Assembly (NCBI GenBank): GCA_018798825.1
Contig: CP076357.1
Coordinates: 620,001 to 684,000, forward strand
Length of the DNA: 64,000 nucleotides
Source of the DNA: Ochrobactrum sp. BTU1
Lineage (GTDB): Bacteria; Pseudomonadota; Alphaproteobacteria; Rhizobiales; Rhizobiaceae
Direction of reading: 5' to 3'
Shown here: positions 44,597 through 63,631 of the stretch, in pieces
Layout: the number at the start of each line of letters is the position of its first letter
Numbering within the stretch: the first letter of the stretch is position 1
Notes under the pieces: generated by a model
Seen by the model: only the letters and a program-made list of their open reading frames with translations
Database searches by the model: none
Told to the model about the DNA's origin: nothing
Program-made: the position numbers and the translations under genes

Positions 44597-44621
44597 GGAA
44601 CTATTTTTGTGACAGTAAGTT
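44597..44621 (+). promoter_or_regulatory. EcfG-type promoter for the DUF3606 gene
   Basis: GGAAC (44597-44601), 17-base spacer, GTT (44619-44621), followed by A. It matches the general-stress GGAAC-N16/17-CGTT class apart from the C, about 105 bases before ATG 44727. Confidence 0.75.
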
Positions 44622-44726
44622 AGTCTTCAGATGTGTTTGCCCGTCTAATGGTAAAGCGCCGAGACACAAGTGTTGAATTTTATCCCGCAACGTGAAGTCA
44701 GACCCAACTGCAGGGGAATGAAGAGC

Positions 44727-44891
44727 ATGAATTCTAAAAGCACCGATCCACTCACCCAGGATGAAGATATCAAGTTTCTGGCGGAAAATACCGACCTTTC
44801 GCCCCTGCAAGCAAAAGATATGATCGAAAAACATGGTCGTGATCGCAAGGTACTCCTTGAGGAAGCCAAAAAATTCAAAGCAGAGAGCTAA
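44727..44891 (+). CDS. DUF3606 domain small protein
   Basis: 54 residues. The family pattern is DIKFLAENTDLSPLQAKDMI followed by HGRDRKVLLEEAKKFK. The frame is open further upstream; ATG 44727 or 44718 is likely, given the GGGGA before them. It has no signal peptide, and two helices are predicted. The family is common in rhizobia and linked to stress-response regulons, which agrees with the EcfG-type promoter upstream. Its molecular function is unknown. Confidence 0.82.
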   Translation: MNSKSTDPLTQDEDIKFLAENTDLSPLQAKDMIEKHGRDRKVLLEEAKKFKAES

Positions 44892-44930
44892 TCAGTTCCC
44901 TTTTTTTGGCAGCAGCCTTCATAACAGTTT

Positions 44931-45992
44931 TTACTGACTGGTTCCCACATGAAGGAGCCATTTCAACGTGATGCGTTCACCTTCGTCTAGCAGGGGTGCA
45001 ACGAGACGCTGCTTTGATGCAAGCTCAGCCTCGTCATGCAAAAGATCGTCTTCCCACTGTTTTAGAACCAAGGGATGAATATAAGAGCTTCGGCAGACCG
45101 CTCTGGTATTGCAAAGTTGCTGCGCGATTTTGTCGATCTCACAGTTAAGCATCTTTTTGCGTGCCGCGGTCGTCGACGGTCGCTCCAAAGCGATCAATCC
45201 TTTAAAGGCAGAGGATGTGGCAGCCCATGTTCTGAAATGCTTGGAGGTAAACTCCGCGTGGGTTGCATTGCGCAAATATGCGTTGATGTCTTGCGATGAT
45301 ATTGCGTGACGCTGTCCAGCCTCGTCAAGGTATTGAAATAACTGTTGTCCGGGCAGTTCTTGCAAGGAACGAATGATCTTCGAAATCCTTCTATCTGAGA
45401 TTTTCAAATTCCAGTCCTTGCCGGATTTCCCTTTGAATATAAGACGCAACTCACCGCTTTCTTCTCGAAGATGGCGGTTGCGCAAAGTGGTCACTCCAAA
45501 GCTTTTATTGTTACGCGCATAGTCGATATTTCCAACGCGCAGCAATAGCCGATCCATCAACCAAATGACGGTTGCAATGACCTTGTCGCGGCTAAATGCG
45601 CGTCGCCGCATATCCTTATCTACTCGTCGACGCAAATCACTGAGACCGCTTGCAAAACCGGCAAGATTTGCGAATTTTGAGTTTCCCTGCAAAAGGGTCC
45701 AATCCGCGTGATAGCGATATTGCTTTCGACCCCTAACGTCGCGCCCCGTCGCCTGAATATGACCTCTTGGATTTTGACAAATCCAAACATCCTTCCATGC
45801 GGGTGGGATGACTATTTTTGCGATACGCTCCTTGTCTTCAAACGAGAGAGCTGCACCTTTTGCGTTTAAATATTGAAACCCCTTGCCTCTTTTCAGGCGT
45901 CGAATGCCAGGTTCTTCGTCACTCACATAGACCAGTTCGCCCAGCGATAACATTTCTTCGTGCTCCGACGGCGGAGAAGTTCTCTCTAACAA
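44931..45992 (-). CDS. DNA topoisomerase IB (poxvirus/eukaryote-type)
   Basis: 353 residues. Key catalytic residues are visible: LLRVGNIDYARNN (Arg152), FKGKSGKDW (Lys about 189), KHFRTWAATSSAF (Arg254) and SSYIHPLVLKQW with nucleophile Tyr304. The N-terminal clamp has ADWTLLQGNSKFA. The enzyme relaxes supercoils through a 3'-phosphotyrosyl intermediate. The start is TTG 45992 with a strong GAGGTGA; ATG 45953 is the alternative. It is divergent from the first Ku gene, with candidate EcfG-type promoters for both between them. Confidence 0.9.
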   Translation of the reverse strand: MLERTSPPSEHEEMLSLGELVYVSDEEPGIRRLKRGKGFQYLNAKGAALSFEDKERIAKIVIPPAWKDVWICQNPRGHIQATGRDVRGRKQYRYHADWTLLQGNSKFANLAGFASGLSDLRRRVDKDMRRRAFSRDKVIATVIWLMDRLLLRVGNIDYARNNKSFGVTTLRNRHLREESGELRLIFKGKSGKDWNLKISDRRISKIIRSLQELPGQQLFQYLDEAGQRHAISSQDINAYLRNATHAEFTSKHFRTWAATSSAFKGLIALERPSTTAARKKMLNCEIDKIAQQLCNTRAVCRSSYIHPLVLKQWEDDLLHDEAELASKQRLVAPLLDEGERITLKWLLHVGTSQ

Positions 45993-46034
45993 ATTTCACC
46001 TCACCAAGGCAGCTGCGCTCAGACTGTCGCCACT

Positions 46035-46060
46035 AACTCTCGAGAGGCGTTGGAGGTTCC
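46035..46060 (-). promoter_or_regulatory. EcfG-type promoter candidate for topoisomerase IB
   Basis: On the minus strand GGAAC (46060-46056), 18-base spacer, GTT (46037-46035), then A. The spacer is one base longer than in most sites here. It is 43 bases from the TTG start. Confidence 0.55.
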
Positions 46061-46078
46061 TCAGAGTCATCGAAATGC

Positions 46079-46103
46079 GGAACCAAGCCCCGTTTTATGA
46101 GTT
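46079..46103 (+). promoter_or_regulatory. EcfG-type promoter for the first Ku gene
   Basis: GGAAC (46079-46083), 17-base spacer, GTT (46101-46103). It lies downstream of ATG 46075, which rules that codon out as the start and supports GTG 46132. Confidence 0.75.
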
Positions 46104-46131
46104 CACTTGGCGAGTGAGAAGGAGCAAGGTT

Positions 46132-46932
46132 GTGCCGAATGCTTTTTGGAAAGGCTATCTCAAGCTGTCGTTGGTGACTTGTGCCGTCGAACTGCGGCCA
46201 GCAACGAGCGAGAGTGAGAGAGTTCGATTTCACACCTTGAACGAGAAAACCGGCAATCGTGTGATAAGCCGTTACATTGATCAGGTCACAAAAAAGCCCG
46301 TGCGCGACGAGGATCAGGCTAAAGGCTATGAGAAGGCTGAGGGCGGATATATTATTCTCGATGATGATGAGTTGGAGCAGGTGGCGCTCGAGAGTACGAA
46401 AACCATTGATATCGATAAATTCGTGCCCCAGGACCGTATCGGGTGGATTTGGTATGATAAACCGCATTTCCTCACTCCCGCCGACAAAATTGGTGCCGAA
46501 GCTTTCGCGGTTATTCGTGAAGCCATGCACCAATCAGCCGTCTATGGCGTCGCGCGCTTGGTTATGTATCGGCGTGAACGTGCTGTATTATTAGAACCGC
46601 GTGAGCGTGGCATTGTGCTCTGGACACTTCGATATGGCGATGAAGTTCGAGATAAGCAGGAATACTTCGCTAAGATCGAAGACAAGGATCCGGAAAAGAA
46701 AATGTTTTCAATGGTCCGGAAATTAATTAAGGCCAATACCGAGGAATGGAACGGCGATGTTTTGCAGGACCCGGTTCAAAAAAACCTCAAGCGGATGATC
46801 GCCAACAAAAAGAAGAAAAAGAAAAACGTTCCTTCTACAAAGAAGGAGGACGCCTCCCCTAAAAGCGATGGCAAGGTGGTCAATATAATGGATGCTTTGC
46901 GTAAGAGCCTTGCAAAAGAAACCAAAGGATAA
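46132..46932 (+). CDS. ku: Ku DNA end-binding protein (first copy)
   Basis: 266 residues from GTG 46132, which has AAGGAG 7 bases upstream; the EcfG-type promoter lies between the upstream ATG 46075 and this start. Bacterial Ku signatures: WKGYLKLSLVTCAVEL at the start, HTLNEKTGNRVISRYID, VRDEDQAKGYEK, YYLAP-like segment WYDKPHFLTPADK and VLLEPRERGIVLWTLRY. A lysine-rich tail (ANKKKKKKN) follows. Ku bridges DNA ends for non-homologous end joining with LigD, which is not in this window. It is convergent with a second Ku gene. Confidence 0.93.
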   Translation: MPNAFWKGYLKLSLVTCAVELRPATSESERVRFHTLNEKTGNRVISRYIDQVTKKPVRDEDQAKGYEKAEGGYIILDDDELEQVALESTKTIDIDKFVPQDRIGWIWYDKPHFLTPADKIGAEAFAVIREAMHQSAVYGVARLVMYRRERAVLLEPRERGIVLWTLRYGDEVRDKQEYFAKIEDKDPEKKMFSMVRKLIKANTEEWNGDVLQDPVQKNLKRMIANKKKKKKNVPSTKKEDASPKSDGKVVNIMDALRKSLAKETKG

Positions 46933-47036
46933 TTGGGCGCGCAATTGCCCGTTAGACGGACCAGGCTCCCAAAAGAGGCTCCACGTTGTGAGGAAAATTC
47001 TAAGGTTGAAATAGATTAAAGTGACTAGCCAGATTC

Positions 47037-47867: not shown

Positions 47868-47990
47868 TCAAGCTCCGTCTTCATGAGAGGACATATTGCG
47901 TGTTTTGCCGAGATACCGGGCGTATAGGAACCCACACGCGACCAACAAGGGAAGCCCAAGCAACACAATCCAGATAAAAAGCGCTCCCAT
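47868..47990 (-). CDS. 40-residue membrane protein co-transcribed with Ku
   Basis: ATG 47990 has GAGGAG 6 bases upstream, and its TGA abuts the Ku start. The peptide has one transmembrane helix (ALFIWIVLLGLPLLVACGFL) and a basic, polar tail. An EcfG-type promoter lies about 40 bases upstream of the start. No family is recognised. The tight coupling to Ku is unexpected for a membrane peptide. Confidence 0.7.
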   Translation of the reverse strand: MGALFIWIVLLGLPLLVACGFLYARYLGKTRNMSSHEDGA

Positions 47991-48026
47991 TTTAAACTCC
48001 TCGATGTGACGGGGAAGTTTCGATTT

Positions 48027-48051
48027 AACCTTTATACCGCGTGATGGTTCC
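48027..48051 (-). promoter_or_regulatory. EcfG-type promoter for the small-membrane-protein/Ku operon
   Basis: Minus strand GGAAC (48051-48047), 17-base spacer, GTT (48029-48027), then A. It is 37 bases before ATG 47990. Confidence 0.75.
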
Positions 48052-48180: not shown

Positions 48181-48205
48181 GGAACGAAATCGGGCCACAG
48201 GCGTT
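48181..48205 (+). promoter_or_regulatory. EcfG-type promoter for the gene at 48237
   Basis: GGAAC (48181-48185), 17-base spacer with C before GTT (48203-48205), a full GGAAC-N16-CGTT match. It is 31 bases before ATG 48237 and excludes an upstream ATG at 48123. Confidence 0.78.
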
Positions 48206-48236
48206 TTGTACCAATTCTCGTATCGGGACGGTTACA

Positions 48237-48500
48237 ATGCAAAATATCGACAGCAAAGACAGGCTGATCCTCGCTCTGGCTTCACTTTTGCGGGCTGAGC
48301 GAGAAACGCGCGGCGCGCTGGAAGCTGCACTTGAAAACGATGATGTTTCGCCGGAGACTTTGCGTGCTATCCTGTCTGATCCGGTTCCGGTCATTACACA
48401 GGAAGACGTTGATTTTGCTGAGAAATTTGCGATGTCGAGGTATTTTTCGGACATCAACCGGAATGCGCAACGCGCCTTGACGGAAAAAGGGACGCAATAG
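48237..48500 (+). CDS. Hypothetical 87-residue stress-regulon protein
   Basis: 87 residues, helical and charged (SKDRLILALASLLRAERETR, then PETLRAILSDPVPVITQEDV). No signal peptide or membrane helix. The promoter position fixes the start at ATG 48237 rather than the longer frame from 48123. I do not recognise the family. Its promoter places it in the general stress regulon. Confidence 0.7.
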   Translation: MQNIDSKDRLILALASLLRAERETRGALEAALENDDVSPETLRAILSDPVPVITQEDVDFAEKFAMSRYFSDINRNAQRALTEKGTQ

Positions 48501-48681: not shown

Positions 48682-50550
48682 GTGAGCGAGAAGGATAATT
48701 TGAAGGCTGCTTCATTGAGTTCGACATTGGAAGCATCGACGCCCGAGAACAAAGACATCACTCGATCTGTAACCTGCAAAGAATTGATGGAAACCATGGA
48801 CTGGACCACAAGCCCTCTCGGCCCAGTTGAACAATGGTCGCCAGAATTGCGCTCAACGCTTGACCTGATACTTCCTGCTCATGCCCAGATCGTCATTTTC
48901 TGGGGGCCTGAGTTCATAGCGCTCTATAATGACGCCTACAGCCCAACAATTGGCAACAAACACCCACAGGCTTTTGGTCGCCCGGCCCGCGAAAACTGGT
49001 CGGAATTGTGGGACGATCTTGGCCCATTGCTTGAGAATGTGATTGCGACCGGCGAGACATTCTCCGCGGAAAATAGAGCGTTTTATATTGAGCGATTTGG
49101 TTATCCCGAGACGGTCTATTTCGACATTTCCTACTCCCCAATCCAGGTATCAGAGAACGGGCCCATGGGAGTGCTTTGCATTGTGAACGAGACGACTAAA
49201 AAAGTCGTTGCAGAACGCCAGCTGGCGGAAAACCAGCAGCGACTGGAATTGGTTTTCTCCCAGACCGATGCCGGGATTGCCTTAAGTGATCGCTCGGGCC
49301 GCTTCATCAAGATCAATCCGCGCCTTTCGGAGATATCAGGATTCCATCATGAAACTCTCTTAGAGACCGGCCTCGCCAAATTGCTGGTTCCTGGGGACAT
49401 GGACGAGTACAATGCAGCACTTGAACGGCTTTTTTCATCGGGTGAAAGTTTCGTTCATGTGTTCAACCTTACCCAAGATGGCCAGCGTACATTGCCTGTC
49501 AGTTGTTCTGCCAGTCCGGTACGCGACGTTAATGGCACGATCACCCACGCGGTCTGGACTATCCTTGATGTGAGTGAACAGTTGCGGGCGCAAGCCTTGG
49601 AAAGCCAATTGGCAGCAATCGTTTCTTCGTCGCATGATGCCATTTTAAGCACCGACCTTGAAATGCGTATCTCGAGTTGGAACGAGGGTGCGCAGCGACT
49701 TTACGGTTACACGGCCGAAGAGGTTATCGGAAAAAAAGTGACTATGCTTTTACCGCCCGACCGATTGACCGAAGAAAACGATATTATAGAGCAAATCTCG
49801 AGCGGATCTCGCGTTGCTCCGCACGAGACTGTTCGTCTTCACAAGGACGGAACGCGATTGGACGTGCAGTTGACTGTTTCTCCCGTTCGCGACGGTGAAG
49901 GGAAGATTGTCGGCGCGTCAAAGACTGCACACGACATAAGTGACAAGCGCAAAGCCCGTGAACTGCAACAGGCGATCCTGCTTGAAATGAAGCACCGCGT
50001 TAAAAATGTTCTGGCTACTGTCCAGGCACTTGCACGGCAGACTTTTCGCAATGATACCCATAAGGCTGCGTATGAAACCTTCGAGGCCCGTCTTGCAGCG
50101 ATGGCGAGAACCCACGACATTCTGGCGGCCGACGGCTGGCAGGCCGCAAAGCTAAACGAGATTATTGAGCAGGCACTTTTGCCTTTCGGCCCAAATAATT
50201 TCACAGTTAATGGCCCATCCGTTATCGTTTCATCGCGCGCGGCAATGGCCTTCTCACTTGGACTGCACGAACTGGCCACCAATGCGTCGAAATACGGCGC
50301 TCTTTCGGTTTCAGGTGGCCGGGTTAACGTTAACTGGCACGTCGATCTTGAGCAACAGCGCCTGCATTTCGCATGGACTGAACAAGACGGTCCACCCGTT
50401 ATGAAGCCTAAAGACGCAGGATTTGGCACGAAACTCATCCGGGGCGTACTGGCTGCGGAAATCGACGGCGTGGTGGAACTAAACTACAACGCTCAGGGCT
50501 TTGTCTGCTCCATCTCGACAGCGCTTAGCAAAATTTCGCAAATCGATTAA
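48682..50550 (+). CDS. Multi-PAS HWE-family sensor histidine kinase
   Basis: 622 residues from GTG 48682, with GGGGAGA upstream. There are three PAS regions: about 40-170 (WTTSPLGPVEQWSPELRSTL start), 180-300 (LVFSQTDAGIALSDRSGRF) and 305-425 (AIVSSSHDAILSTDLEMRIS). The HWE kinase core has H-box EMKHRVKNVLATVQALARQ at about 434 and LHELATNASKYGALS as N box. There is no membrane helix, so it is cytoplasmic. In alphaproteobacteria such kinases feed the PhyR-NepR-EcfG pathway. Its place in a GGAAC-promoter island suggests that role here. Confidence 0.9.
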   Translation: MSEKDNLKAASLSSTLEASTPENKDITRSVTCKELMETMDWTTSPLGPVEQWSPELRSTLDLILPAHAQIVIFWGPEFIALYNDAYSPTIGNKHPQAFGRPARENWSELWDDLGPLLENVIATGETFSAENRAFYIERFGYPETVYFDISYSPIQVSENGPMGVLCIVNETTKKVVAERQLAENQQRLELVFSQTDAGIALSDRSGRFIKINPRLSEISGFHHETLLETGLAKLLVPGDMDEYNAALERLFSSGESFVHVFNLTQDGQRTLPVSCSASPVRDVNGTITHAVWTILDVSEQLRAQALESQLAAIVSSSHDAILSTDLEMRISSWNEGAQRLYGYTAEEVIGKKVTMLLPPDRLTEENDIIEQISSGSRVAPHETVRLHKDGTRLDVQLTVSPVRDGEGKIVGASKTAHDISDKRKARELQQAILLEMKHRVKNVLATVQALARQTFRNDTHKAAYETFEARLAAMARTHDILAADGWQAAKLNEIIEQALLPFGPNNFTVNGPSVIVSSRAAMAFSLGLHELATNASKYGALSVSGGRVNVNWHVDLEQQRLHFAWTEQDGPPVMKPKDAGFGTKLIRGVLAAEIDGVVELNYNAQGFVCSISTALSKISQID

Positions 50551-50713
50551 CGCAGAAGTGCACGAGAAACAGTGTGCTCGCCAGAATGTGAGTAATGGCT
50601 TGTGCCGTTACGAAAGAGTTCACTTGCAAACCAAGATGAACATTGGCGCAGTCCCGCTCAAAATTCTCAACGTCAGACAGAAATCGTTTTTGACAAAAAA
50701 ACGCTGAATGAAG

Positions 50714-50738
50714 GAAACATTTTTCTTCCTAGACGGTT
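50714..50738 (+). promoter_or_regulatory. EcfG-type promoter, variant -35, for the DUF892 gene
   Basis: GAAAC (one mismatch to GGAAC), 17-base spacer, GTT (50736-50738), 64 bases before ATG 50803. It is the only site in the island whose -35 deviates. Confidence 0.5.
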
Positions 50739-50802: not shown

Positions 50803-51306
50803 ATGGCCAGAACGAAAGAACGTAATCTTGAAGATCTCTTCTATGATACGCTCAAAGACATCTATTACGCAGAAAGAAAAATCCTGAAGACGCTTCCTAA
50901 GATGGCACGCGCTGCTGCAGACGAAAAATTGAAACTTGCTTTTGAGAAGCACCGCGAGCAAACGGAAACGCATGTCGAACGCTTACAGCAAGTGTTCGAG
51001 ATTCTTGGCAAACGCGCGCAGGGTAAGACTTGTGATGCGATTGAAGGGATCATCGCAGAAGGTGAGGAAATCATGGAGGAGTTCTCCGATAGTCCTGCGC
51101 TGGACGCGGGCCTTATTTCTTCAGCTCAGGCGGTGGAGCACTATGAGATTACTCGTTATGGCACCCTGAAGCGCTGGGCAGAGACTTTGGGCTACAAGGA
51201 TGCGGCGAAGCTGCTTGATGCCACTTTGCAGGAGGAAGGTCAGACCGATAAGGATCTGACGGGTCTTGCTGAGACTTCGGCCAATAGGACTGCCCAAGCT
51301 GCATAA
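50803..51306 (+). CDS. DUF892 (YciF-type) ferritin-like stress protein
   Basis: 167 residues. The family start is NLEDLFYDTLKDIYYAERKI, then LKLAFEKHREQTETHVERLQ, and later QAVEHYEITRYGTLKRWAE; these helices carry the Glu/His di-metal ligands. ATG 50803 has AAGGAG. E. coli YciF and YciE belong here and are stress-induced, but their catalytic role is unclear. A stable hairpin follows the gene. Confidence 0.9.
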   Translation: MARTKERNLEDLFYDTLKDIYYAERKILKTLPKMARAAADEKLKLAFEKHREQTETHVERLQQVFEILGKRAQGKTCDAIEGIIAEGEEIMEEFSDSPALDAGLISSAQAVEHYEITRYGTLKRWAETLGYKDAAKLLDATLQEEGQTDKDLTGLAETSANRTAQAA

Positions 51307-52411: not shown

Positions 52412-52436
52412 GGAACAACGGTCCTTTCGTATGGTT
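52412..52436 (+). promoter_or_regulatory. EcfG-type promoter for the KGG protein and ECF sigma gene
   Basis: GGAAC (52412-52416), 17-base spacer, GTT (52434-52436), then A. It is 61 bases before ATG 52497. If transcription reads through the next hairpin, the ECF sigma gene at 52744 would be under autoregulation. Confidence 0.75.
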
Positions 52437-52496: not shown

Positions 52497-52685
52497 ATGG
52501 CCCAGAACCATACACAGGGCGGAAGTCACGAACAGCACGTAAAGGCCGGTCAGCAGAGCCACAAGAATACTGACAAGCAGGCCAGTGACGCTAAAGGTCG
52601 CGACAATGATAAGCAATCCTCCTCACGTGGCGGTAGTCATGAGCAGCACGTGAAGGCGGGACAGCAGAGCCACAAAAACTCTTAA
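52497..52685 (+). CDS. KGG-repeat stress-induced protein
   Basis: 62 residues. Two identical 17-residue units, GGSHEQHVKAGQQSHKN (about 8-24 and 45-61), are joined by a very polar linker. It is of the KGG / 'stress-induced bacterial acidophilic repeat' kind, small hydrophilic proteins linked to desiccation and stationary phase. ATG 52497 has GAAGGAA. The upstream promoter excludes the longer open frame from 52167. Confidence 0.82.
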   Translation: MAQNHTQGGSHEQHVKAGQQSHKNTDKQASDAKGRDNDKQSSSRGGSHEQHVKAGQQSHKNS

Positions 52686-52743: not shown

Positions 52744-53250
52744 ATGTTTTGCCAGCCAAATTCAAACTATGTGTTACAAGCTGACGACCTTGTCGAGATG
52801 ATACCGGCATTGCGTGCTTTCTCTCGAACCTTCTACAAAAATAAGGAGGATGCCGAGGATCTCGTTCAGGAAACCTTGATGAAAGCGATCGCAAAGAGGG
52901 AAAAATATGCTCCTTATTCACCGCTCAGGTCATGGCTTTTTACGATTATGAAGAACACGTTTTGCACACGTTTACGGGTTGAGAAGCGAGAGGCACCCGG
53001 ACATGATGCCTGTGTTTCTCCGCAGTTGACGATAAGAGCGTCGCAAGAGTCTGCTCTGGAAGCAAAAGAAGTGCGGATGGCGCTAGAGGTCTTGCCGGAG
53101 AAATATCGTCGAGTTCTTATGCTTGTCGTCTTTGAAGGTAATTCTTACGACCGGACGGCCGACATCTGTTCATGCTCGGTAGGTACCGTGAAAAGTAGGT
53201 TGCACCGCGCACGTCACAAACTCCATGAGATCGTAGATGGGGTCAACTAG
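52744..53250 (+). CDS. EcfG-like ECF sigma factor (first)
   Basis: 168 residues. Region 2: IPALRAFSRTFYKNKEDAED, LVQETLMKAIAKREKY and SPLRSWLFTIMKNTFCTRLR. Region 4: LEVLPEKYRRVLMLVVFEGN, then SVGTVKSRLHRARHKL. The pattern is that of the alphaproteobacterial EcfG/ECF15 group, which recognises GGAAC promoters. It could transcribe the many GGAAC-type promoters around it. No anti-sigma (NepR) gene is adjacent. Confidence 0.9.
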   Translation: MFCQPNSNYVLQADDLVEMIPALRAFSRTFYKNKEDAEDLVQETLMKAIAKREKYAPYSPLRSWLFTIMKNTFCTRLRVEKREAPGHDACVSPQLTIRASQESALEAKEVRMALEVLPEKYRRVLMLVVFEGNSYDRTADICSCSVGTVKSRLHRARHKLHEIVDGVN

Positions 53251-54054: not shown

Positions 54055-54765
54055 ATGGACGGCGTAATTCAATTGAAGAACCGAATACTAAGAAGCCTTT
54101 CTCCCGACGTATTTCATGATATTTTTTCTTCCTTTGAGCCAGTCGCGCTGGAGCGCGGTCAGATAATTGTTCCTGCAAGCAAGCCGATTGATTATCTCTA
54201 TTTCCTTTGCGATGGAATTGCTTCCGTCATTACCGTGTCCGCAAGCGGCCAGCTTGCTGAAGCGGGCATGGTTGGGCGCGAAGGTTTTGCACCAACATCG
54301 ATCGCCGTTGGTGCAAATACGAGCCTGCACCAGGTGGTCATGCAGGTGAGCGGCACTGGACATCGAATAAGGGCGACCGATTTACGAGCCCACCTCGACA
54401 AACACAGTGTTTTAGCAAATTTACTCGCCCGTTATATTCAAAGCTTTGCTTCTCAAGTTTCCTACACAGTTTGGGCCAACGTCAATCTTCATATCCAGGA
54501 ACGTCTTGCGCGGTGGTTATTAATGGCGCATGACCGAACAGATACTGATGAGATCGAGCTGACGCATGACTTTATTGCGCTGATGCTCGGCGTAAGACGT
54601 CCAAGCATCACAACCGGTATGCATACGCTTGAAGGAAAGAAGCTGGTTCGTTCAGAGCGGGGCCGGATTACAATTCGGGACAGAAAGGGACTGGAAGACT
54701 TTGCAGGCGACGCTTACGGGAAACCGGAGGAAGAATATCTTACTCTTTTCGGAACGGTGCTCTAA
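54055..54765 (+). CDS. Crp/Fnr-family regulator (first of a facing pair)
   Basis: 236 residues from ATG 54055 (AGGA upstream); the frame is open from TTG 53983. The N-terminal cyclic-nucleotide-binding-like beta barrel has DYLYFLCDGIASVITVSASG. The C-terminal winged helix has LTHDFIALMLGVRRPSITTG followed by LEGKKLVRSERGRITIRDR. No Fnr-type cysteine cluster is seen. Its stop overlaps that of the second Crp/Fnr gene, which faces it. Confidence 0.88.
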   Translation: MDGVIQLKNRILRSLSPDVFHDIFSSFEPVALERGQIIVPASKPIDYLYFLCDGIASVITVSASGQLAEAGMVGREGFAPTSIAVGANTSLHQVVMQVSGTGHRIRATDLRAHLDKHSVLANLLARYIQSFASQVSYTVWANVNLHIQERLARWLLMAHDRTDTDEIELTHDFIALMLGVRRPSITTGMHTLEGKKLVRSERGRITIRDRKGLEDFAGDAYGKPEEEYLTLFGTVL

Positions 54766-55958: not shown

Positions 55959-56432
55959 TCACCCCAAATCCGCTTCAAGTTGGTTTCTCGCACGACACAA
56001 TCTGCTTTTAATAGTACCGATTGTACATCCAGCCTGCGTTGCAGCATTTTCGTAGCTTAACCCGTTAAAGACGACCATATCGATCACGTTACGGTGGCTT
56101 TGAGTTAATTTACTGTATGCGCGCCCGACATCCTGTAAATCCATCGCAGAATCTTGCGGTGGATGGATCACAGGGCCCACTTCATCTCCAAGCGGTCGTT
56201 CTCTGCGCGCCTTTTTAAAGCGACTGCAAAAACTGTTCTTCATGATGGTAAAGAGCCAAGATTTAAGCGTCCCATACGGAGTGAACTTTTCCCGGTTCTT
56301 CAAAGCTTTGACAACTGTTTCCTGCACCAAGTCGTCAGCATCGGCTGGCTGGCGACACAAAGAGCGTGCAAACTGGTTAAGCGCGGGTAGCAAATCCATT
56401 AGCTCGCGCTCAAAATCCTTTTCCGATAACAT
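55959..56432 (-). CDS. EcfG-like ECF sigma factor (second)
   Basis: 157 residues. Region 2: LLPALNQFARSLCRQPADAD, DLVQETVVKALKNREKF and GTLKSWLFTIMKNSFCSRFK. Region 4: LTQSHRNVIDMVVFNGLSYE, then GTIKSRLCRARNQLEADL. It is paralogous to the sigma at 52744 and fits EcfG-type recognition of GGAAC promoters. ATG 56432 has GGGAGA upstream. No NepR or PhyR gene is beside it and no GGAAC-type promoter precedes it. Confidence 0.9.
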   Translation of the reverse strand: MLSEKDFERELMDLLPALNQFARSLCRQPADADDLVQETVVKALKNREKFTPYGTLKSWLFTIMKNSFCSRFKKARRERPLGDEVGPVIHPPQDSAMDLQDVGRAYSKLTQSHRNVIDMVVFNGLSYENAATQAGCTIGTIKSRLCRARNQLEADLG

Positions 56433-56679: not shown

Positions 56680-57288
56680 ATGGCGCGAGACGCAGACATA
56701 ATCAGAGACAATCTCCGTTTCGGAAGCGTGCACCTATGCGTTGATATGCAAAACCTATTCGGAGCAGGATCGCCGTGGAATGTACCCTGGAGCGAAGCGA
56801 TCCTTCCAAAAATTGTAAGCATTTGCGAAGTTTGCGCGGAAAAAACGGTGTTCACCCGGTTTATTCCCCCTAAAAATCCCGGCATCGCAATTGGCGCATG
56901 GAAGAAATATTACGAGAAATGGGAATCCGTTACACTTGATAAGATCGACAGCAGACTGGTCGAACTGGCTGACCCTCTGCAAAGGTTTGTCGGTCGCGCG
57001 AGGGTGTTGGATAAATCCGTGTATTCCCCCTGGACGGAAGGCCACCTTCAGCGTTCGCTTTACAAACTGCGCATACGTACACTGGTTGTCACTGGTGCTG
57101 AAACCGACCTTTGCGTGCTTGCAACAGTTCTTGGTGCGGTCGATCGAGGCTATCGCGTCATTTTAGTGAAAGATGCTGTTTGCAGCAGTTCGGATAAGAC
57201 ACATGATGCCGCTTTATCGCTCTATCACAACCGATTGTCCGAGCAAATTACCCTGATTTCTACCGACGAGCTGCTTGATGCATGGTAA
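56680..57288 (+). CDS. Isochorismatase-family cysteine hydrolase
   Basis: 202 residues from ATG 56680, with CGAGGAA upstream. The catalytic triad is visible: Asp22 (LCVDMQNLF), Lys112 (VLDKSVYSPW) and Cys145 (GAETDLCVLATV). The family includes nicotinamidases, N-carbamoyl hydrolases and isochorismatases; the substrate is not clear. Its EcfG-type promoter puts it in the stress regulon, where nicotinamide recycling is one plausible role (inference). Confidence 0.85.
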   Translation: MARDADIIRDNLRFGSVHLCVDMQNLFGAGSPWNVPWSEAILPKIVSICEVCAEKTVFTRFIPPKNPGIAIGAWKKYYEKWESVTLDKIDSRLVELADPLQRFVGRARVLDKSVYSPWTEGHLQRSLYKLRIRTLVVTGAETDLCVLATVLGAVDRGYRVILVKDAVCSSSDKTHDAALSLYHNRLSEQITLISTDELLDAW

Positions 57289-57309: not shown

Positions 57310-57540
57310 TTAAAACCGGCGCAGCGTCGGCTGGTCAGGGTTTGTCGGCGGTGGTGGCAGGTGCTCAGGCGCAGGCAAGTCAGGCTCTGGTTCGGGTTGC
57401 GCAGGAATATCGGGGCCCAAAGGCTCCGGCACGACGTCCGGCTCTTTCTCAGGGACTTGAGCGGGCGGAACGTCTGGAATTTCCGGCGTACCATTGATTG
57501 AAGCAAGATTGAAAGCCCGGCGAGTTGATGAATTGATCAT
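57310..57540 (-). CDS. Small proline-rich protein
   Basis: 76 residues. After a short N-terminal STRRAFNLASINGTPEI segment comes a Pro/Glu/Asp run (PAQVPEKEPDVVPEPLGPDI, then PAQPEPEPDLPAPEHLPP). ATG 57540 has AAAGGA upstream and an EcfG-type promoter 23 bases before it; the alternative ATG 57555 would sit at the predicted transcript start. It is probably intrinsically disordered. No signal peptide is seen. Family unknown. Confidence 0.65.
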   Translation of the reverse strand: MINSSTRRAFNLASINGTPEIPDVPPAQVPEKEPDVVPEPLGPDIPAQPEPEPDLPAPEHLPPPPTNPDQPTLRRF

Positions 57541-57562
57541 AGGGTTTCCTTTCATTCAAACC

Positions 57563-57643: not shown

Positions 57644-58411
57644 CTAACCGCCAGTCTCTTCATTTGTAGCGTCAACAGGCTTGGATTCTGGTGACCCCTT
57701 TTCTCGTAAGTATATTGAGAGGACAACCAATACAGCGGTTAAGAGAAACTCGGACTGCCAGTTCTGAAACGACTCAAACCATAGGCCCGCATCCAAAAGA
57801 TATGACCAATAGTTGCCAGCGGTCTCTCCGTGAGCGGTCGCCTCATCCACAGCTGCGCGGAAGCTTCCCGCCGTATGAAGTCCAGAACAGAGAATAAATA
57901 GTAAGAACAGCGCTATACCCAACGAATGCCGGTAGAAAAAACCCGTTCTAGAATGTTTATTTTCGGCGCTGTTGGGTTCTTCGTCGGGATCTTTTGATTC
58001 AGCTGAGCCGCGCTGGAACAGCCATGCAGTGAGGACCACATAAACCCCCATCTGTAAAAATTCACTTTCCCAATTTTCAAAAAGCGCCGACAAGAAATTG
58101 CCGCCTGTTATGAAACTTATGAGGCTGACACTTGCTTGTCTGTGCCGCAAAAGTTCTTCATTATGGTGAGCGAAGCCTGCAGCGATCATGCCAATAAGCG
58201 AGAGCAGGAAGAGAATAGCGAGAGCTATCGTTAAGCCGTTATCTCTAAAGAATGAATGCTTCGCTTTCGGCATTTGGTACTCTCCTGTGCCATTCCGCTT
58301 CGTGTCAAATGCCATCAATCCTGGATGCTCGAGTTTCTCATGCCGGGTCGTATTCGCAGACAACTCGCGGCTCTTTGCCCGTGTTGCTAAGGGGTCGTAA
58401 GTTGGCTTCAT
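57644..58411 (-). CDS. DUF6766-family membrane protein with internal duplication
   Basis: 255 residues from ATG 58411 (GAGAGGAA upstream), or 209 from ATG 58273 (AGGAG upstream); both have good sites and the first 46 residues are polar. Two halves repeat each other: FFRDNGLTIALAILFLLSLI with FENWESEFLQMGVYVVLTAW, and FFYRHSLGIALFLLFILCSG with FQNWQSEFLLTAVLVVLSIY; each ends with a GS-ESK tail. Each half has two membrane helices. An EcfG-type promoter lies just upstream. Function unknown. Confidence 0.82.
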   Translation of the reverse strand: MKPTYDPLATRAKSRELSANTTRHEKLEHPGLMAFDTKRNGTGEYQMPKAKHSFFRDNGLTIALAILFLLSLIGMIAAGFAHHNEELLRHRQASVSLISFITGGNFLSALFENWESEFLQMGVYVVLTAWLFQRGSAESKDPDEEPNSAENKHSRTGFFYRHSLGIALFLLFILCSGLHTAGSFRAAVDEATAHGETAGNYWSYLLDAGLWFESFQNWQSEFLLTAVLVVLSIYLREKGSPESKPVDATNEETGG

Positions 58412-58536: not shown

Positions 58537-58953
58537 TCACGGCTGCACATAGCTTGTTACGGAAAGCTTGAGCGACCCCTCGTTTGGATTGGTTCCGAAA
58601 AATAACGCACCACGCGAGGTGGCCTCTGACGCGACGTAATCAAATGTCGTCACGGCCTGCTCGGGGCCACCTTGACCATCAAGTTCTCCAACGACACGTA
58701 CTGCAGCAGCACTCGCCTGGCTGAGATTAGTCACGGAAAAGGCCACTCTATAGCTGTCGTTAACGCGCGTGATTTCAGTTGTTTCCAGGCGAAATGAGGC
58801 TTCCTGCGGTTGGTAGCGGTAGGTTTCATAGCCGAGCCAACCCAGAAGAAGTGCGATCAGAATGCCTGAGATCGCACCTGCACACCATTCAGTCCAATGC
58901 ACTTTTTCCGACTGCTCGTCATTCTTGCTGGTCTTGTTTTGGGTAGAATTCAT
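58537..58953 (-). CDS. TIGR02588-family membrane-anchored protein
   Basis: 138 residues. One transmembrane helix near the N-terminus (ISGILIALLLGWLGYETYRY, about 29-48) precedes a beta-rich soluble domain (RVNDSYRVAFSVTNLSQASA) likely in the periplasm. It follows the TIGR02587 gene by 6 bases. The two are known as a conserved pair of unknown function. It shares that gene's EcfG-type promoter. Confidence 0.82.
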   Translation of the reverse strand: MNSTQNKTSKNDEQSEKVHWTEWCAGAISGILIALLLGWLGYETYRYQPQEASFRLETTEITRVNDSYRVAFSVTNLSQASAAAVRVVGELDGQGGPEQAVTTFDYVASEATSRGALFFGTNPNEGSLKLSVTSYVQP

Positions 58954-58959
58954 AATGCC

Positions 58960-59802
58960 TCACAATATCAGTCGTGCCGAAGCCGCACCGATGGCGCCGG
59001 GAAAACTCAAGACGATGATCGTTGTTATTGATTGCGCCAATGACGCATCATCTAATCGCTCGAAGGTCCACAGCGCATAGGCACTCGTTGTAAAGGCGAG
59101 CAAATATCCTGGCAGCGTAAACCGAACAAATGAGTTCCACCATTGAGTGTTTTCCGGCCCACGATGACTACCTCGAAAATGGATGCTGTAGACGAAACCA
59201 TGCATGAGAAGGATTGAGCTCAACAGAATAAGGAGTGTTTGAGCCGGCACGATCTTGTAGGCGATTAAGATCATTTCCTCGGTCGGCGCGACGTTCAGGC
59301 TCAAGAATAATGCGCCGACGGTCATCATGAAGAGCTCGTTCCAGTAGCCCTCCTCACCCTCATAATCACCTTCTTGTTTATCATCTTTTTCCGAGCGCAT
59401 TCCGAGCTGGCTCCGACCGAGCAGCGCACCGATGCTCGCTGGCACTGCCTGCAAGGCAATCATTGCGATCATATGATTTAAGGTAAGATCGCTATTGATA
59501 AGACCGAACATGGCCAAGACAAGCGCACTTAGGATAATCCCAAGCGCGTAGGCGATAAATGCGTCTCGCGCCGACTGCCGCCAATTCGTAGCCCGCTCAA
59601 ATCCGATCCGATAGGCCAATCCAATCAACAAAGGAATGTTCACAAAACAAAGCAACAGGATGCGGAAAGGACTAGCATAAAGGCCCAATTCCCACATTTC
59701 CATGGTCATAAGCATGGGCAATGCAAATAAGAGCGCACCGGCCAGTCCGCGCGCAAGACCTGTATAGAAGTCTGGATGCATTTCTAACGGCTTAACCTTC
59801 AC
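58960..59802 (-). CDS. TIGR02587-family integral membrane protein
   Basis: 280 residues and about seven membrane helices (for example ARGLAGALLFALPMLMTMEM and NELFMMTVGALFLSLNVAPT). A charged cytoplasmic loop (EKDDKQEGDYEGEEGYWNE) lies mid-protein. The start is GTG 59802, with AAGGGG upstream. It is the first gene of the TIGR02587/TIGR02588 pair, with an EcfG-type promoter 44 bases upstream. Function unknown; a stress-induced membrane complex is inferred. Confidence 0.82.
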   Translation of the reverse strand: MKVKPLEMHPDFYTGLARGLAGALLFALPMLMTMEMWELGLYASPFRILLLCFVNIPLLIGLAYRIGFERATNWRQSARDAFIAYALGIILSALVLAMFGLINSDLTLNHMIAMIALQAVPASIGALLGRSQLGMRSEKDDKQEGDYEGEEGYWNELFMMTVGALFLSLNVAPTEEMILIAYKIVPAQTLLILLSSILLMHGFVYSIHFRGSHRGPENTQWWNSFVRFTLPGYLLAFTTSAYALWTFERLDDASLAQSITTIIVLSFPGAIGAASARLIL

Positions 59803-59941: not shown

Positions 59942-59966
59942 GGAACCTAGTTCGATCTGGGGAGTT
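59942..59966 (+). promoter_or_regulatory. EcfG-type promoter for the PepSY and general-stress-protein genes
   Basis: GGAAC (59942-59946), 17-base spacer, GTT (59964-59966), 37 bases before ATG 60003. Confidence 0.75.
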
Positions 59967-60002: not shown

Positions 60003-60323
60003 ATGAAAATCAAGATCTTAGCGCTTGCTTGCGCATGCTTTGTTGCGCCGTCAATTGGCTTCGCCCAAGACACTGGGACAACTTCTCCCGAGACTCCAGC
60101 GGTTGCAACCCCTGAGAACAACAATCCCGATGCGCCTGTGAAGGGAGCGAATAGTTTTACAGAGGATCAGGCAAAGTCCCGGATTGAAGAAGCGGGTTAC
60201 AGTGATGTGACAGCTTTGAAGCTACGAGAAGACGGTGTCTGGGAAGCTTCAGCCATGAAGGGGACTGAAAAGACCGAAGTTCAACTCGATTATCAAGGCA
60301 ATGTCACCAAGAAGGCGATGTAA
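60003..60323 (+). CDS. Secreted PepSY-like small protein
   Basis: 106 residues. The signal peptide (KIKILALACACFVAPSIGFA) is cleaved near FAQ. A Thr/Pro-rich spacer follows, then a PepSY-like domain: FTEDQAKSRIEEAGYSDVTA, LREDGVWEASA and VQLDYQGNVTKK. GGAGAA precedes the start. The domain is associated with periplasmic regulation or protease inhibition. It is upstream of the general stress protein gene by 60 bases, probably one transcript. Confidence 0.82.
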   Translation: MKIKILALACACFVAPSIGFAQDTGTTSPETPAVATPENNNPDAPVKGANSFTEDQAKSRIEEAGYSDVTALKLREDGVWEASAMKGTEKTEVQLDYQGNVTKKAM

Positions 60324-60383
60324 CGGCCTCGGACATTTTTATGACCAATCAAACTTTCTAAGTATCTCACAAGGGAGACGATA

Positions 60384-60962: not shown

Positions 60963-61052
60963 AATTTAAGCGAAGAGCGGGTGAAAGCCCGCTTTTCTCA
61001 TTTTGGAAGAAATGTATCAATTTCTGTTTCTTCCCCTTCAAGGAGGAAAGTT

Positions 61053-61946: not shown

Positions 61947-62288
61947 CCAGCACTGTCCCCGCGGTCGTCATTGAAATGAGTCTGAGTTAAGGATGCTGGC
62001 GGCGGCGTAATTGCCGTCGCCATGTGGATACCGATCACGCTAACCATCTGGCTTGGTGCCTGTAGAGAAGCACAGTGGGCGCGTTCTGTATCGTTTTGGT
62101 CAATCCGTCGAGCGCCCTTGCGGATATCGTCGCCTGTCGACGACAAACACCGGAAAGTGTTTGCCCGGCCCAACGATCGTTGGGCATGCAGCTCCCTTAA
62201 AAGGATCGCTTCCGTACTCGCCACCTCAGCCGAGTTCATACTGTCAGTCTCAATCGAGCTGACAGTATGTAAGGACAGGCGAGACACC
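61947..62288. other. Intergenic region with inverted repeat
   Basis: About 340 bases between convergent genes. A perfect 11-bp inverted repeat (CATACTGTCAG / CTGACAGTATG, 62237-62269) sits 20 bases after the dehydrogenase stop and probably ends its transcript. A 114-codon minus-strand frame covers this region, but I do not support it as a gene. Confidence 0.45.
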
Positions 62289-63452
62289 CTATCCGTTCGG
62301 ACTGATCACAACCTTCACACAGCCATTTTCTTTATCCCGAAACCGTTTATAAGCATTTGGCCCTTCTTCGATCGTCACCCGATCAGTGATGAGAAAGGTG
62401 GGGTCAATCTTGCCATCCGCAATAAGCTGCATCAGCGGTGCAAGATAACGCTGAACGTGTGTCTGACCAGTCTTCATCGTCAACCCTTTTCCGACGAAGG
62501 GGCCGAGTGCTATCGGAACAGCAGGACCGATAAAAACCCCGGGTAAAAATACGGTACCACCCGGCCGACAAGCAAGCAAAGCTTGGTTAAGAGCATAGGG
62601 CCGTTCCAACGAAGTGAACTTGGACTGCATCGTTTCAAGTGCCCCACCCGATCCGTGGCTTTCCATACCCACCGCTTCAATGACTGCATCTGGCCCCGCT
62701 CCATCCGTCATCTCTACGATTTTCTGCTGCAGATCTTCGTCGGTATAGTCGAGAACGTCTGCTCCCGAAATTCCGGCCAGTTCCAATCGCTCAGGGACAG
62801 TGTCGATAGCAATTACTCTGCCAGCGCCTAAGAGAAATGCGGACTTGATTGCAAACAATCCCACCGGGCCGCATCCGAATACGGCGACAGTCTGTCCAGG
62901 TTTGATATCGCAATTTTCTGCAGCCATATAACCGGTGGGAAAGATATCGGATAGAAAAAGGACCTGCTCATCAGAGAGACCATCGGGGACCACGATTGGT
63001 CCAACATCAGCGAAGGGAACCCTGAGATATTGCGCTTGTCCTCCCGGGTAGCGGCCATACATTTCAGAATAACCAAAAAGACCAGCGGTCGGATAACCGA
63101 TCTGTTTAGCCTGTTGGGTTGCGGCAGGATTTGATCGTTCGCAAAGAGAGAATAGGCTCTGGCGGCACATTCTGCACTCCCCGCAAGATATCGTAAAGGG
63201 AACAACGACCCGATCCCCTATTTTGAGGCGGCTATTTCCACGGCCGACCTCCACTACCTCTCCCATGGTTTCGTGCCCCATGACATCACCCGCATGCATA
63301 CCAGGTACAAATCCTCCATAAAGATGGAGGTCAGAACCGCAAATTGCGCAACTCGTTACCTTAATGATTGCGTCGCGATCATCCTGGATAAACGGATCAT
63401 CGACTGTTTCGCAGCGAATATCACCTGTACCGTGCCATGTGAGAGCTTTCAT
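62289..63452 (-). CDS. Zinc-dependent alcohol dehydrogenase (formaldehyde-dehydrogenase-like)
   Basis: 387 residues. The catalytic zinc site shows CAICGSDLHLYGG and GHETMGEVVEVG. The structural zinc cysteines are in CGECRMCRQSLFSLCE. The NAD motif is VAVFGCGPVGLFAIKSAFLL. The class resembles glutathione-independent formaldehyde or threonine-type dehydrogenases. ATG 63452 has AAAGGAA. An EcfG-type promoter lies about 85 bases upstream. A role in clearing stress-produced aldehydes is likely but inferred. Confidence 0.9.
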   Translation of the reverse strand: MKALTWHGTGDIRCETVDDPFIQDDRDAIIKVTSCAICGSDLHLYGGFVPGMHAGDVMGHETMGEVVEVGRGNSRLKIGDRVVVPFTISCGECRMCRQSLFSLCERSNPAATQQAKQIGYPTAGLFGYSEMYGRYPGGQAQYLRVPFADVGPIVVPDGLSDEQVLFLSDIFPTGYMAAENCDIKPGQTVAVFGCGPVGLFAIKSAFLLGAGRVIAIDTVPERLELAGISGADVLDYTDEDLQQKIVEMTDGAGPDAVIEAVGMESHGSGGALETMQSKFTSLERPYALNQALLACRPGGTVFLPGVFIGPAVPIALGPFVGKGLTMKTGQTHVQRYLAPLMQLIADGKIDPTFLITDRVTIEEGPNAYKRFRDKENGCVKVVISPNG

Positions 63453-63537
63453 TGTCAGTTTCCTTTTTGATTAAGTTTTGTTCCCCTGTGACGCACATGC
63501 AGTAATGGACGCATCATTCCGGTATGCGGCTCCCCCC

Positions 63538-63562
63538 AACTCACCGCCGGACCAACTGTTCC
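63538..63562 (-). promoter_or_regulatory. EcfG-type promoter for the zinc dehydrogenase
   Basis: Minus strand GGAAC (63562-63558), 17-base spacer, GTT (63540-63538). Confidence 0.75.
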
Positions 63563-63606
63563 CTGCGGACCAATGACTAAAATCTTTGAAACTAAATGGC
63601 GTTGGG

Positions 63607-63631
63607 GGAACATGACGCGGCCATCGGGGTT
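63607..63631 (+). promoter_or_regulatory. EcfG-type promoter for the right-edge gene
   Basis: GGAAC (63607-63611), 17-base spacer, GTT (63629-63631), 43 bases before ATG 63675. It is back-to-back with the dehydrogenase promoter. Confidence 0.75.

What the first reader, a model, noticed from the sequence alone, without database searches (positions are those of the whole stretch)
44597..63631. A dense EcfG-type general-stress regulon defined by repeated GGAAC-N17/18-GTT promoters
Reading the intergenic DNA between 44.6 and 63.7 kb I find 14 exact GGAAC-N17/18-GTT sites and one near match. Each lies 20-110 bases upstream of a gene and in its orientation. A rough count for 8 fixed bases over about 20 kb, two strands and two spacings is about one chance hit, with most not upstream of genes. 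I did not see the motif in the intergenic regions of the left 44 kb. EcfG sigma factors of alphaproteobacteria use GGAAC-N16/17-CGTT. The island therefore acts as one regulon that includes many genes of unknown function.
Basis: partly seen in the sequence, partly recalled or inferred. Interest (0 to 1): 0.8.

Follow-up and report, generated by a model that had tools for sequence, protein, structure and literature searches.

The report
Stress-gene island with its own promoters
A bacterium of the Brucella/Ochrobactrum group carries a cluster of stress-type genes that share one repeated promoter-like sequence, and two sigma-factor genes inside the cluster are predicted to read a slightly different promoter dialect from the one used by the cell's main stress regulator, so the cluster would work as a partly self-governed second stress response.

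Summary
In detail: 14 GGAAC-N17/18-GTT sites in the interval against about 1.1 expected (Poisson P about 1e-11), each pointing at a gene or ORF, with a sharp spacing peak at N17 and conserved sites in related genomes. The island continues at least 23 kb past the window. The canonical PhyR-NepR-EcfG genes lie on another contig with a CGTT promoter, and CGTT makes up 19 of 33 non-island sites upstream of genes. Only 1 of the 14 window sites is CGTT. In islands GTT is followed by NGG in 28-37% of sites; this form is absent from 33 non-island sites and from 23 sites in genomes lacking the island's two EcfG-like sigma genes. In such genomes the YflT-type stress operon carries CGTT in 6 of 8 copies, against 1 of 22 in genomes with them. 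Twelve plasmid neighbourhoods of related sigma genes show the same GTTNGG bias. Best explanation: most island promoters are read by the resident non-canonical EcfG paralogs, a minority by canonical EcfG. This assignment is inferred. Counterexamples (genome G025, some CGTT sites in islands) and published GGTT targets of canonical EcfG support the rival: canonical EcfG reads all.

The parts
44597..44621 (+). promoter-like site GGAAC-N17-GTT (A before GTT), upstream of a 53-aa ORF at 44730-44891
   Evidence: no Pfam family over its cut-off for the ORF
44931..45953 (-). bacterial DNA topoisomerase IB
   Evidence: Pfam PF01028, PF21338
46035..46060 (-). site, N18, A before GTT, upstream of topoisomerase IB
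   Evidence: the site divergent from Ku1 is N18 in 15 of 24 Ku1 rows of at least 69% identity and N17 with CGTT in 4
46079..46103 (+). site, N17, A before GTT, upstream of Ku1; 24 of 24 rows (22 genomes) of at least 69% identity have an N17 site: G 19, A 4, C 1
46132..46932 (+). Ku1, non-homologous end-joining protein
   Evidence: PF02735, TIGR02772
47037..47867 (-). Ku2, second Ku protein, behind a small ORF 47868-47990
   Evidence: PF02735, TIGR02772
48027..48051 (-). site, N17, G before GTT, upstream of the small ORF and Ku2
48181..48205 (+). site, N17, the only canonical CGTT of the 14; upstream of ORF 48237-48500
   Evidence: scores as canonical class, -6.0
48682..50550 (+). PAS-domain HWE-family histidine kinase (possible input to the stress response)
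   Evidence: PF07536 and PAS families
50713..50738 (+). near-match promoter GGAAAC...GGTT upstream of the DUF892 gene
   Evidence: sequence, by eye
50803..51306 (+). DUF892 protein
   Evidence: PF05974
51434..52078 (+). YflT-like protein, weak match
   Evidence: PF11181 E=0.00056, below cut-off
52412..52436 (+). site, N17, GGTTAGG; promoter of the operon small ORF - ECF1 - receiver-like; a site lies there in 8 of 8 ECF1 relatives examined, never with C
   Evidence: island-class score 6.3
52497..52685 (+). 62-aa repeat protein (KGG-like by recall; no Pfam match), first gene of the ECF1 operon
52744..53250 (+). ECF1, non-canonical EcfG-like sigma factor (40% identical to the chromosomal EcfG)
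   Evidence: PF04542, PF08281, PF22029
53336..53731 (+). receiver-domain-like protein, very weak match
   Evidence: PF00072 E=0.086, below cut-off; found beside ECF1 in relatives
54055..54765 (+). Crp/Fnr-like regulator 1
   Evidence: PF13545
54762..55493 (-). Crp/Fnr-like regulator 2
   Evidence: PF13545, PF00027
55527..55552 (-). site, N18, G before GTT, upstream of Crp2
55959..56432 (-). ECF2, second non-canonical EcfG-like sigma factor (46% identical to ECF1, 41% to EcfG); no exact site within 300 bases upstream
   Evidence: PF04542, PF08281, PF22029
56572..56596 (+). site, N17, AGTTCGG, upstream of the isochorismatase-family gene
   Evidence: sites before the orthologous gene in relatives
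56680..57288 (+). isochorismatase-family hydrolase
   Evidence: PF00857
57563..57587 (-). site, N17, AGTTGG, upstream of ORF 57310-57555
57644..58411 (-). DUF6766 protein
   Evidence: PF20554
58436..58460 (-). site, N17, A before GTT, upstream of the DUF6766 gene
58960..59802 (-). DUF2391 integral membrane protein, followed by ORF 58537-58953
   Evidence: PF09622
59846..59870 (-). site, N17, T before GTT, upstream of the DUF2391 gene; CGTT at this gene in G010 and G013, which lack ECF1/2
59942..59966 (+). site, N17, AGTTCGG, before the PepSY - YflT - SDR genes
   Evidence: ortholog comparison
60003..60323 (+). PepSY-domain protein
   Evidence: PF13670
60384..60962 (+). YflT-domain stress protein
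   Evidence: PF11181
61053..61946 (+). SDR-family oxidoreductase
   Evidence: NF004782 over cut-off
62289..63452 (-). zinc-dependent alcohol dehydrogenase family
   Evidence: PF08240, PF00107
63538..63562 (-). site, N17, AGTTGGG, upstream of the alcohol dehydrogenase gene
63607..63631 (+). site, N17, G before GTT, upstream of ORF 63675 that runs out of the window

Best explanation
This is a dense stress-gene island whose promoter-like sites share the GGAAC -35 box and N16/17 spacing of the alphaproteobacterial general stress response, and most of them are likely read by two EcfG-like sigma factors encoded inside the island rather than by the cell's canonical EcfG. Shown: the site cluster, its conservation, and a dialect with mostly A, G or T before GTT and in 28-37% of sites GG two bases after it, against mostly CGTT elsewhere in the genome. 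Inferred: stress acting through HWE kinases and the PhyR-NepR switch frees canonical EcfG, which would fire the CGTT promoters (phyR itself and a few island genes). ECF1 would fire its own operon promoter (52412) and, with ECF2, the remaining island genes, giving a positive-feedback module for DNA end-joining, membrane, redox and unknown functions. How ECF1 and ECF2 are held off is unknown; the one NepR found in the genome is not beside them.
For: (1) Density and spacing: 14 sites against 1.07 expected; in 14 loci of relatives, some of them near copies, N17 = 104 against 3-25 at other spacings. (2) Own-genome census of 179 N17 sites outside the island: upstream of a gene are 19/54 with C, 8/44 with T, 4/50 with G, 2/31 with A; island, 18 intergenic sites: A10, G4, C3, T1; Fisher P = 0.007 for C. 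(3) GTTNGG: 0/33 own non-island and 0/23 in ECF1/2-less genomes, but 5/18 own island, 21/57 relatives' islands and 29/72 around related sigma genes on 12 plasmids, against 5-7% background. (4) Out of sample: a score trained only on other genomes separates own island from own non-island sites, AUC 0.77, P = 8e-4; without the first -10 base AUC 0.71, P = 0.007; the phyR promoters of 5 genomes all score as canonical. (5) Promoter of the PepSY-YflT genes: 22 genomes with ECF1/2 and a site give A11, G10, C1 (a 23rd has no site); 8 copies in 7 genomes without give C6, T1, A1. DUF2391: CGTT in G010 and G013, the two ECF1/2-less genomes where it was seen. (6) The site before the ECF1 operon is GGTT in own and G or T in 8 of 8 relatives, some near copies. 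(7) No NepR and no full PhyR was found in the 12 plasmid neighbourhoods, and their sigma is nearer to ECF1 or ECF2 than to own EcfG in all 12, in one (L414) by little. (8) Published: R. etli EcfG1 and EcfG2 each preferred their own promoter in E. coli, and only 1 of 19 EcfG2-dependent units had the EcfG1 motif (PMC3892343; passages and sections 16 and 19).
Against: G025 has no ECF1/2 yet has GGTT at Ku1 and AGTT at YflT and elsewhere; its 6 deduplicated sites lack GTTNGG and 4 of 6 score as canonical. ECF1/2-less G034 has GGTT 284 bases before its catalase, and in ECF1/2-less G010 even the phyR promoter is AGTT. Conversely, genomes with ECF1/2 have CGTT before topoisomerase IB (4 genomes), Ku1 (G033) and YflT (G027). 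In the own island 6 of 18 sites score below zero, three of them strongly, and 9 of 33 non-island sites score above zero. C before GTT in the own island (3/18) is not below background (P = 0.59); what is missing is the C enrichment seen elsewhere. The YflT gene tree needs only 3 changes of label, 2 forced, so independent events are few. In M. extorquens the consensus of EcfG1 and EcfG1/EcfG2 targets is C/GGTT and its EcfG paralogs were judged to read similar promoters (PMC4814048, passages); in Sphingopyxis the -10 box is flexible (PMC7083833, passages); in R. etli both EcfGs activated phyR in E. coli.
Confidence: 0.52

Rival explanations
1. Canonical EcfG reads all GGAAC-N16/17-NGTT promoters; the island is simply a dense part of the ordinary general stress regulon, and the first -10 base only tunes strength. 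ECF1 and ECF2 amplify the same regulon.
For: M. extorquens consensus C/GGTT; flexible -10 in Sphingopyxis; C. crescentus SigU as amplifier, as told in PMC3892343; G025 keeps A/G-type sites without ECF1/2; G034 catalase GGTT and G010 phyR AGTT; CGTT at some island genes of genomes with ECF1/2.
Against: Outside the island, AGTT and GGTT sites are upstream of genes in only 6 of 81 and GTTNGG in 0 of 33; ten stretches of eight ECF1/2-less genomes also show 0 of 23 GTTNGG. Flanking bases other than the first -10 base also separate the classes.
Confidence: 0.36
2. Base composition or a shared recent origin of the island explains the dialect: the sites were duplicated with their flanks and the letters mean nothing.
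For: The contig has lower G+C than the C1 stretches sampled (0.50-0.53, once 0.41, against 0.52-0.55); some orthologous sites in close relatives are near copies.
Against: Other intergenic GTTs in the same DNA are followed by NGG in 5-7%, against 28% of own-island, 37% of relatives'-island and 40% of plasmid sites. The 14 spacers are different sequences. Counts in relatives were made after removing rows at least 70% alike. High-G+C plasmids of other families show the same GTTNGG bias.
Confidence: 0.05
3. The cluster of motifs is chance or an artefact of reading.
For: 8 fixed bases are short and the genome-wide count is no higher than the reversed control.
Against: 14 against 1.07 expected, P = 1e-11; sharp N17 peak and conservation across genomes.
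Confidence: 0.01

Closest known systems
Canonical EcfG (ECF15) general stress regulon, PhyR-NepR-EcfG
   Same: GGAAC -35 box, N16/17 spacing, stress-type gene content; the genome has one PhyR/NepR/EcfG locus at C1:1842.5-1844 kb with a CGTT promoter before phyR.
   Different: Genes are packed in one island on another contig; 13 of 14 window sites lack the C of CGTT; GTT is followed by NGG in 28-37% of island sites.
Non-canonical plasmid-borne EcfG2 of Rhizobium etli (PF00052), PMC3892343
   Same: EcfG-like sigma without neighbouring anti-sigma or response-regulator genes, on a plasmid, with dependent genes that mostly lack the EcfG1 motif.
   Different: No motif could be found for EcfG2 there; here a candidate dialect (GGAAC-N16-DGTTNGG) is proposed. 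Orthology of ECF1/2 to EcfG2 was not tested; R. phaseoli plasmid relatives are about 49% identical to ECF1.
RpoE5 of Sinorhizobium meliloti (ECF15, pSymB), PMC6180224
   Same: Second ECF15 sigma on a large plasmid (passages).
   Different: Its gene is activated by canonical RpoE2 and only one putative target was found by overexpression.
EcfG1/EcfG2 pair of Sphingopyxis granuli, PMC7083833
   Same: Two EcfG paralogs and variable -10 boxes (passages).
   Different: There the authors suggest that both sigma factors read the same promoters, best with CGTT; no island was described in the passages seen.

Membership tests
Canonical EcfG regulon (promoters) | GGAAC -35 box with N16/17 to the -10 box | tested here: met
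   14 sites, spacing peak at N17 counted to GTT
Canonical EcfG regulon (promoters) | CGTT -10 box | tested here: not met
   1 of 14 window sites; 3 of 18 N17 intergenic sites of the whole island
Canonical EcfG regulon (promoters) | dependence on PhyR-NepR-EcfG | not testable with these tools
   components present on C1; no expression data
EcfG-like (ECF15-type) sigma factor: ECF1 and ECF2 | sigma region 2 and region 4 without further domains | tested here: met
   PF04542 and PF08281
EcfG-like (ECF15-type) sigma factor: ECF1 and ECF2 | similarity to EcfG and to the sigma-like domain of PhyR | tested here: met
   40-41% identity to EcfG; PF22029 over cut-off. In NCBIfam the general ECF model TIGR02937 is over its cut-off; the best-scoring narrower sigma models are below theirs
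Canonical EcfG: ECF1 and ECF2 | gene beside nepR and phyR | tested here: not met
   the only NepR match in the genome is at C1:1842761; hence filed as non-canonical
Canonical EcfG: ECF1 and ECF2 | held by NepR | not testable with these tools
   no binding data

The most novel reading that the evidence does not exclude
Large plasmid-type replicons of Hyphomicrobiales carry a second, self-governed general stress response: a non-canonical EcfG that switches on a surrounding island of stress genes through its own promoter dialect, GGAACA-N15-DGTTNGG, insulated from the chromosomal CGTT regulon by one -10 base and the bases just after the box.
Probability: 0.4. Interest if true: 0.75.

Novelty: new variant of a known kind. 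Interest (0 to 1): 0.6.

Why it matters
According to the R. etli paper (PMC3892343, abstract and sections seen) about half of the completed alphaproteobacterial genomes have two or more EcfG-type genes, the extra copies had not been satisfactorily explained, and no promoter motif could be found for its second EcfG. The island gives a concrete, testable answer: extra copies may serve stress-gene islands on secondary replicons, with a promoter form that can be told from the canonical one by sequence. It also gathers genes of unknown function (DUF6766, DUF2391, several small ORFs) under one predicted stress control.

Tried and rejected
Catalase as a second ortholog test (20 rows): with ECF1/2, 8 rows have a same-strand N17 site within 500 bases (A 2, G 5, T 1) and 8 have none; without, G034 has GGTT at -284, and G010, G015 and G018 have none (there a CGTT site lies before an upstream DUF892 gene). 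It does not support the reading and G034 goes against it. Loop 3 of sigma region 2 as the cause of the dialect: ECF1/2 carry PY where EcfG carries GTN, but plasmid relatives with the same dialect carry GT there, so this was dropped. Per-genome DGTT counts: genomes with ECF1/2 have a higher ratio to the reversed control (median 0.97 against 0.75, n = 23 and 12, P = 8e-4), but related genomes are not independent and composition is not controlled, so it is not main evidence. A near search of the plasmid collection with the 20-kb region gave no match. In the script the small first gene of the ECF1 operon was translated out of frame; corrected. The gene caller is home-made and at the setting missed ECF1 and ECF2 themselves, so 'intergenic' and 'upstream' counts are approximate; a start was sought up to 250 bases away (200). 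The census leaves out the left 44 kb of the window (4 N17 sites, all coding) and drops sites near locus ends. It compares non-island sites with a called gene against island sites that are intergenic, with or without one. Plasmid neighbourhoods: 12 of 447 matching records were analysed, chosen from the best 60; two of the 12 (L404, L414) show no N17 peak; a 13th was not used for sites. On re-checking, the odds of the best explanation were lowered from 0.55 to 0.52 and of the novel case from 0.42 to 0.40, and the main rival raised from 0.33 to 0.36, because of the G034 catalase site and the CGTT sites before topoisomerase IB, which I had left out.


Full report
What is there. The interval holds 14 exact GGAAC-N17/18-GTT sites, 12 with N17 and 2 with N18. 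A crude gene caller puts all 14 in intergenic DNA; 13 have a called gene on the same strand downstream, and 57563 has an ORF. Eight lie inside the longest possible form of an ORF, so this rests on later starts. The window is C4:620001-684000 of a 5.88-Mb, four-contig genome; C4 is 840 kb. The whole genome has 329 such hits against 419 for the reversed pattern, so the motif is not enriched overall; in this interval 1.07 are expected and 14 are found, P = 1e-11. The left 44 kb has 7 hits, 5 coding and one overlapping palindromic pair intergenic at 26998-27025.

Extent. The next 40 kb of C4 (684-724 kb) were read. Five further sites lie upstream of called genes up to C4:707 kb, and a sixth (N18) before an ORF called at a lower threshold. 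By eye, and not by a family search, some of these genes look like a catalase, a pyridoxamine-oxidase-like stress protein, MgtC and an exonuclease III. The island is thus about 42 kb, or 47 kb if a last site without a near gene (C4:711540) is counted.

Gene content: DNA topoisomerase IB, two Ku proteins, a PAS/HWE histidine kinase, DUF892, a YflT-domain stress protein and a second weak YflT match, two EcfG-like sigma factors (ECF1, ECF2), two Crp-like regulators, isochorismatase, DUF6766, DUF2391, PepSY, an SDR and a zinc alcohol dehydrogenase, plus small ORFs without a Pfam family over cut-off. A receiver-like protein beside ECF1 matches Response_reg only at E = 0.086.

Whose genome. The single scan of named genomes with ECF1 gave its closest matches (67-71% identity) in Brucella/Ochrobactrum species such as B. 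pituitosa, B. tritici, B. rhizosphaerae and B. oryzae, among the 80 loci kept.

Conservation. Fourteen loci of such relatives (L027-L040) were mapped with the island's proteins. Many of the same genes carry sites, also where gene order differs. Over these loci N17 occurs 104 times and other spacings from 8 to 27 bases 3-25 times; the reversed N17/18 control gives 29 against 114 forward. Some of these loci are near copies of each other. The Ku1 promoter has an N17 site in 24 of 24 rows (22 genomes) of at least 69% identity, out of 30 rows examined; of the other six, one more has a site and five have none.

Canonical system. The genome has one NepR match, and beside it PhyR and a canonical EcfG, at C1:1842.5-1844 kb; the promoter before phyR is CGTT. 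Of the other three PhyR-sigma2-domain hits two are ECF1 and ECF2, and one is a sigma on C2 in a different setting. ECF1 and ECF2 are 40-41% identical to EcfG and 46% to each other.

Two promoter forms in one genome. I listed sites by the base before GTT, fetched 156 stretches around N17 sites outside the island that I did not already hold, and classified 179 distinct N17 sites. Upstream of a gene: 19 of 54 with C, 8 of 44 with T, 4 of 50 with G, 2 of 31 with A. In the island, 18 of 19 N17 sites are intergenic: A10, G4, C3, T1. C in the own island is not below background (P = 0.59); what it lacks is the C enrichment of the non-island sites. The classes also differ behind the box: GTTNGG occurs in 0 of 33 non-island upstream sites and in 5 of 18 island sites (P = 0.004). 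In other Ochrobactrum-type islands, after removing rows at least 70% alike, 57 sites give G31, T14, A9, C3 and 21 GTTNGG; background among other intergenic GTTs there is 6% GTTNGG and 24% C. A score trained on those islands against ECF1/2-less genomes, with the own genome left out, ranks own island above own non-island sites (AUC 0.77, P = 8e-4; 0.71 and P = 0.007 without the first -10 base), and the phyR promoters of five genomes all score as canonical. Six of 18 island sites score below zero (strongly at 48181 and at two sites right of the window, -3.8 at Ku1, slightly at 48027 and 44597), and 9 of 33 non-island sites score above zero. The island is a mixture, not pure.

A natural experiment. 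Of 35 genus genomes, 23 encode ECF1/ECF2-type proteins (in G001 in split pieces; in G005 more distant ones) and 12 only more distant sigma factors such as canonical EcfG. The PepSY-YflT promoter was read in 30 genomes plus a second copy of G010. With ECF1/2: A 11, G 10, C 1, no site 1. Without: C 6, T 1, A 1 (Fisher P = 3e-4). DUF2391 is preceded by CGTT in the two ECF1/2-less genomes where it was seen, and DUF892 in four, with a fifth C at N18; DUF892 copies without a site exist too, and the own DUF892 gene has only a near match. The gene tree shows few independent events: 3 changes at best, 2 forced. Against the reading: G025 has no ECF1/2 but GGTT at Ku1 and AGTT at YflT and elsewhere (its six deduplicated sites lack GTTNGG and four score as canonical); G034 has GGTT before its catalase; the phyR promoter of G010 is AGTT; and genomes with ECF1/2 have CGTT before topoisomerase IB (four genomes), Ku1 (G033) and YflT (G027).

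Wider occurrence. ECF1-like sigma genes (all below 60% identity) are in 447 plasmid records, 321 of them Rhizobium, Sinorhizobium or Agrobacterium. Twelve neighbourhoods of about 17-20 kb were fetched. They hold 79 N17 sites against 7 reversed-control hits, though two of the twelve show no N17 peak. Seventy-two distinct intergenic sites give G28, A15, C15, T14, and 29 GTTNGG against 6.8% background, P = 7e-16. No NepR and no full PhyR was found in them. Where annotation exists, neighbours include DUF892 or ferritin-like proteins, topoisomerase IB, CsbD, Crp and HWE kinase genes. No canonical control from the same high-G+C species was available.

Mechanism. Shown: the clustering, the conservation, the two dialects, their association with ECF1/2-type genes, and a non-CGTT site before the ECF1 operon in own and 8 of 8 relatives. 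Inferred: that ECF1 and ECF2 read the island form, that ECF1 feeds back on itself, and that the HWE kinase and receiver-like protein take part. How ECF1 and ECF2 are restrained is unknown.

Literature. I saw passages, and for PMC3892343 also sections 16 and 19, of PMC3892343, PMC7083833, PMC4814048, PMC8103513, PMC6180224, PMC3616915 and PMC4167512. PMC4167512 states that RpoE4 and PF00052 of R. etli share one motif, citing PMC3892343, whose own section 19 says that no motif was found for EcfG2. Searches for such an island or dialect in the held open-access library listed no paper whose title or abstract start describes it; listings were capped and most subscription journals are not in that library.

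Verdict. It is a new variant of a known kind of system, with the sigma assignment the point to test.

Noticed in passing
26998-27025: Palindrome GGAACCAA...TTGGTTCC between two minus-strand genes, giving a motif hit on both strands; may be an operator rather than a promoter.
   Followed up: no
C2:437860-438315 (L026): Another ECF sigma gene with PF22029 similarity (31-36% identity to EcfG, ECF1 and ECF2), followed by an ORF that looks like a membrane anti-sigma factor by eye; no GGAAC-N17/18-GTT site in the 3.2-kb locus. A separate system.
   Followed up: partly
52744-53250 and 55959-56432: Both sigma genes were missed by the codon-usage gene caller at the setting; possibly of foreign origin.
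   Followed up: no
L011 (C4:784001-804000): Local G+C drops to 0.41 against 0.50-0.53 in the other stretches of C4 read, suggesting an insertion.
   Followed up: no
L030:14157-14183, L038:10335-10361, L040:10535-10561: The site before Crp2 in some relatives is a two-strand overlap (GGAAC...GTTCC), so one stretch could fire in both directions.
   Followed up: no
L038, G001:C2, G006:C4: Island genes, sigma genes among them, are split by frame changes in some assemblies; sequencing error or decay cannot be told apart.
   Followed up: no
46035-46103: Topoisomerase IB and Ku1 face away from two back-to-back sites; the pair of sites is seen in many relatives, usually with N18 on the topoisomerase side.
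   Followed up: partly
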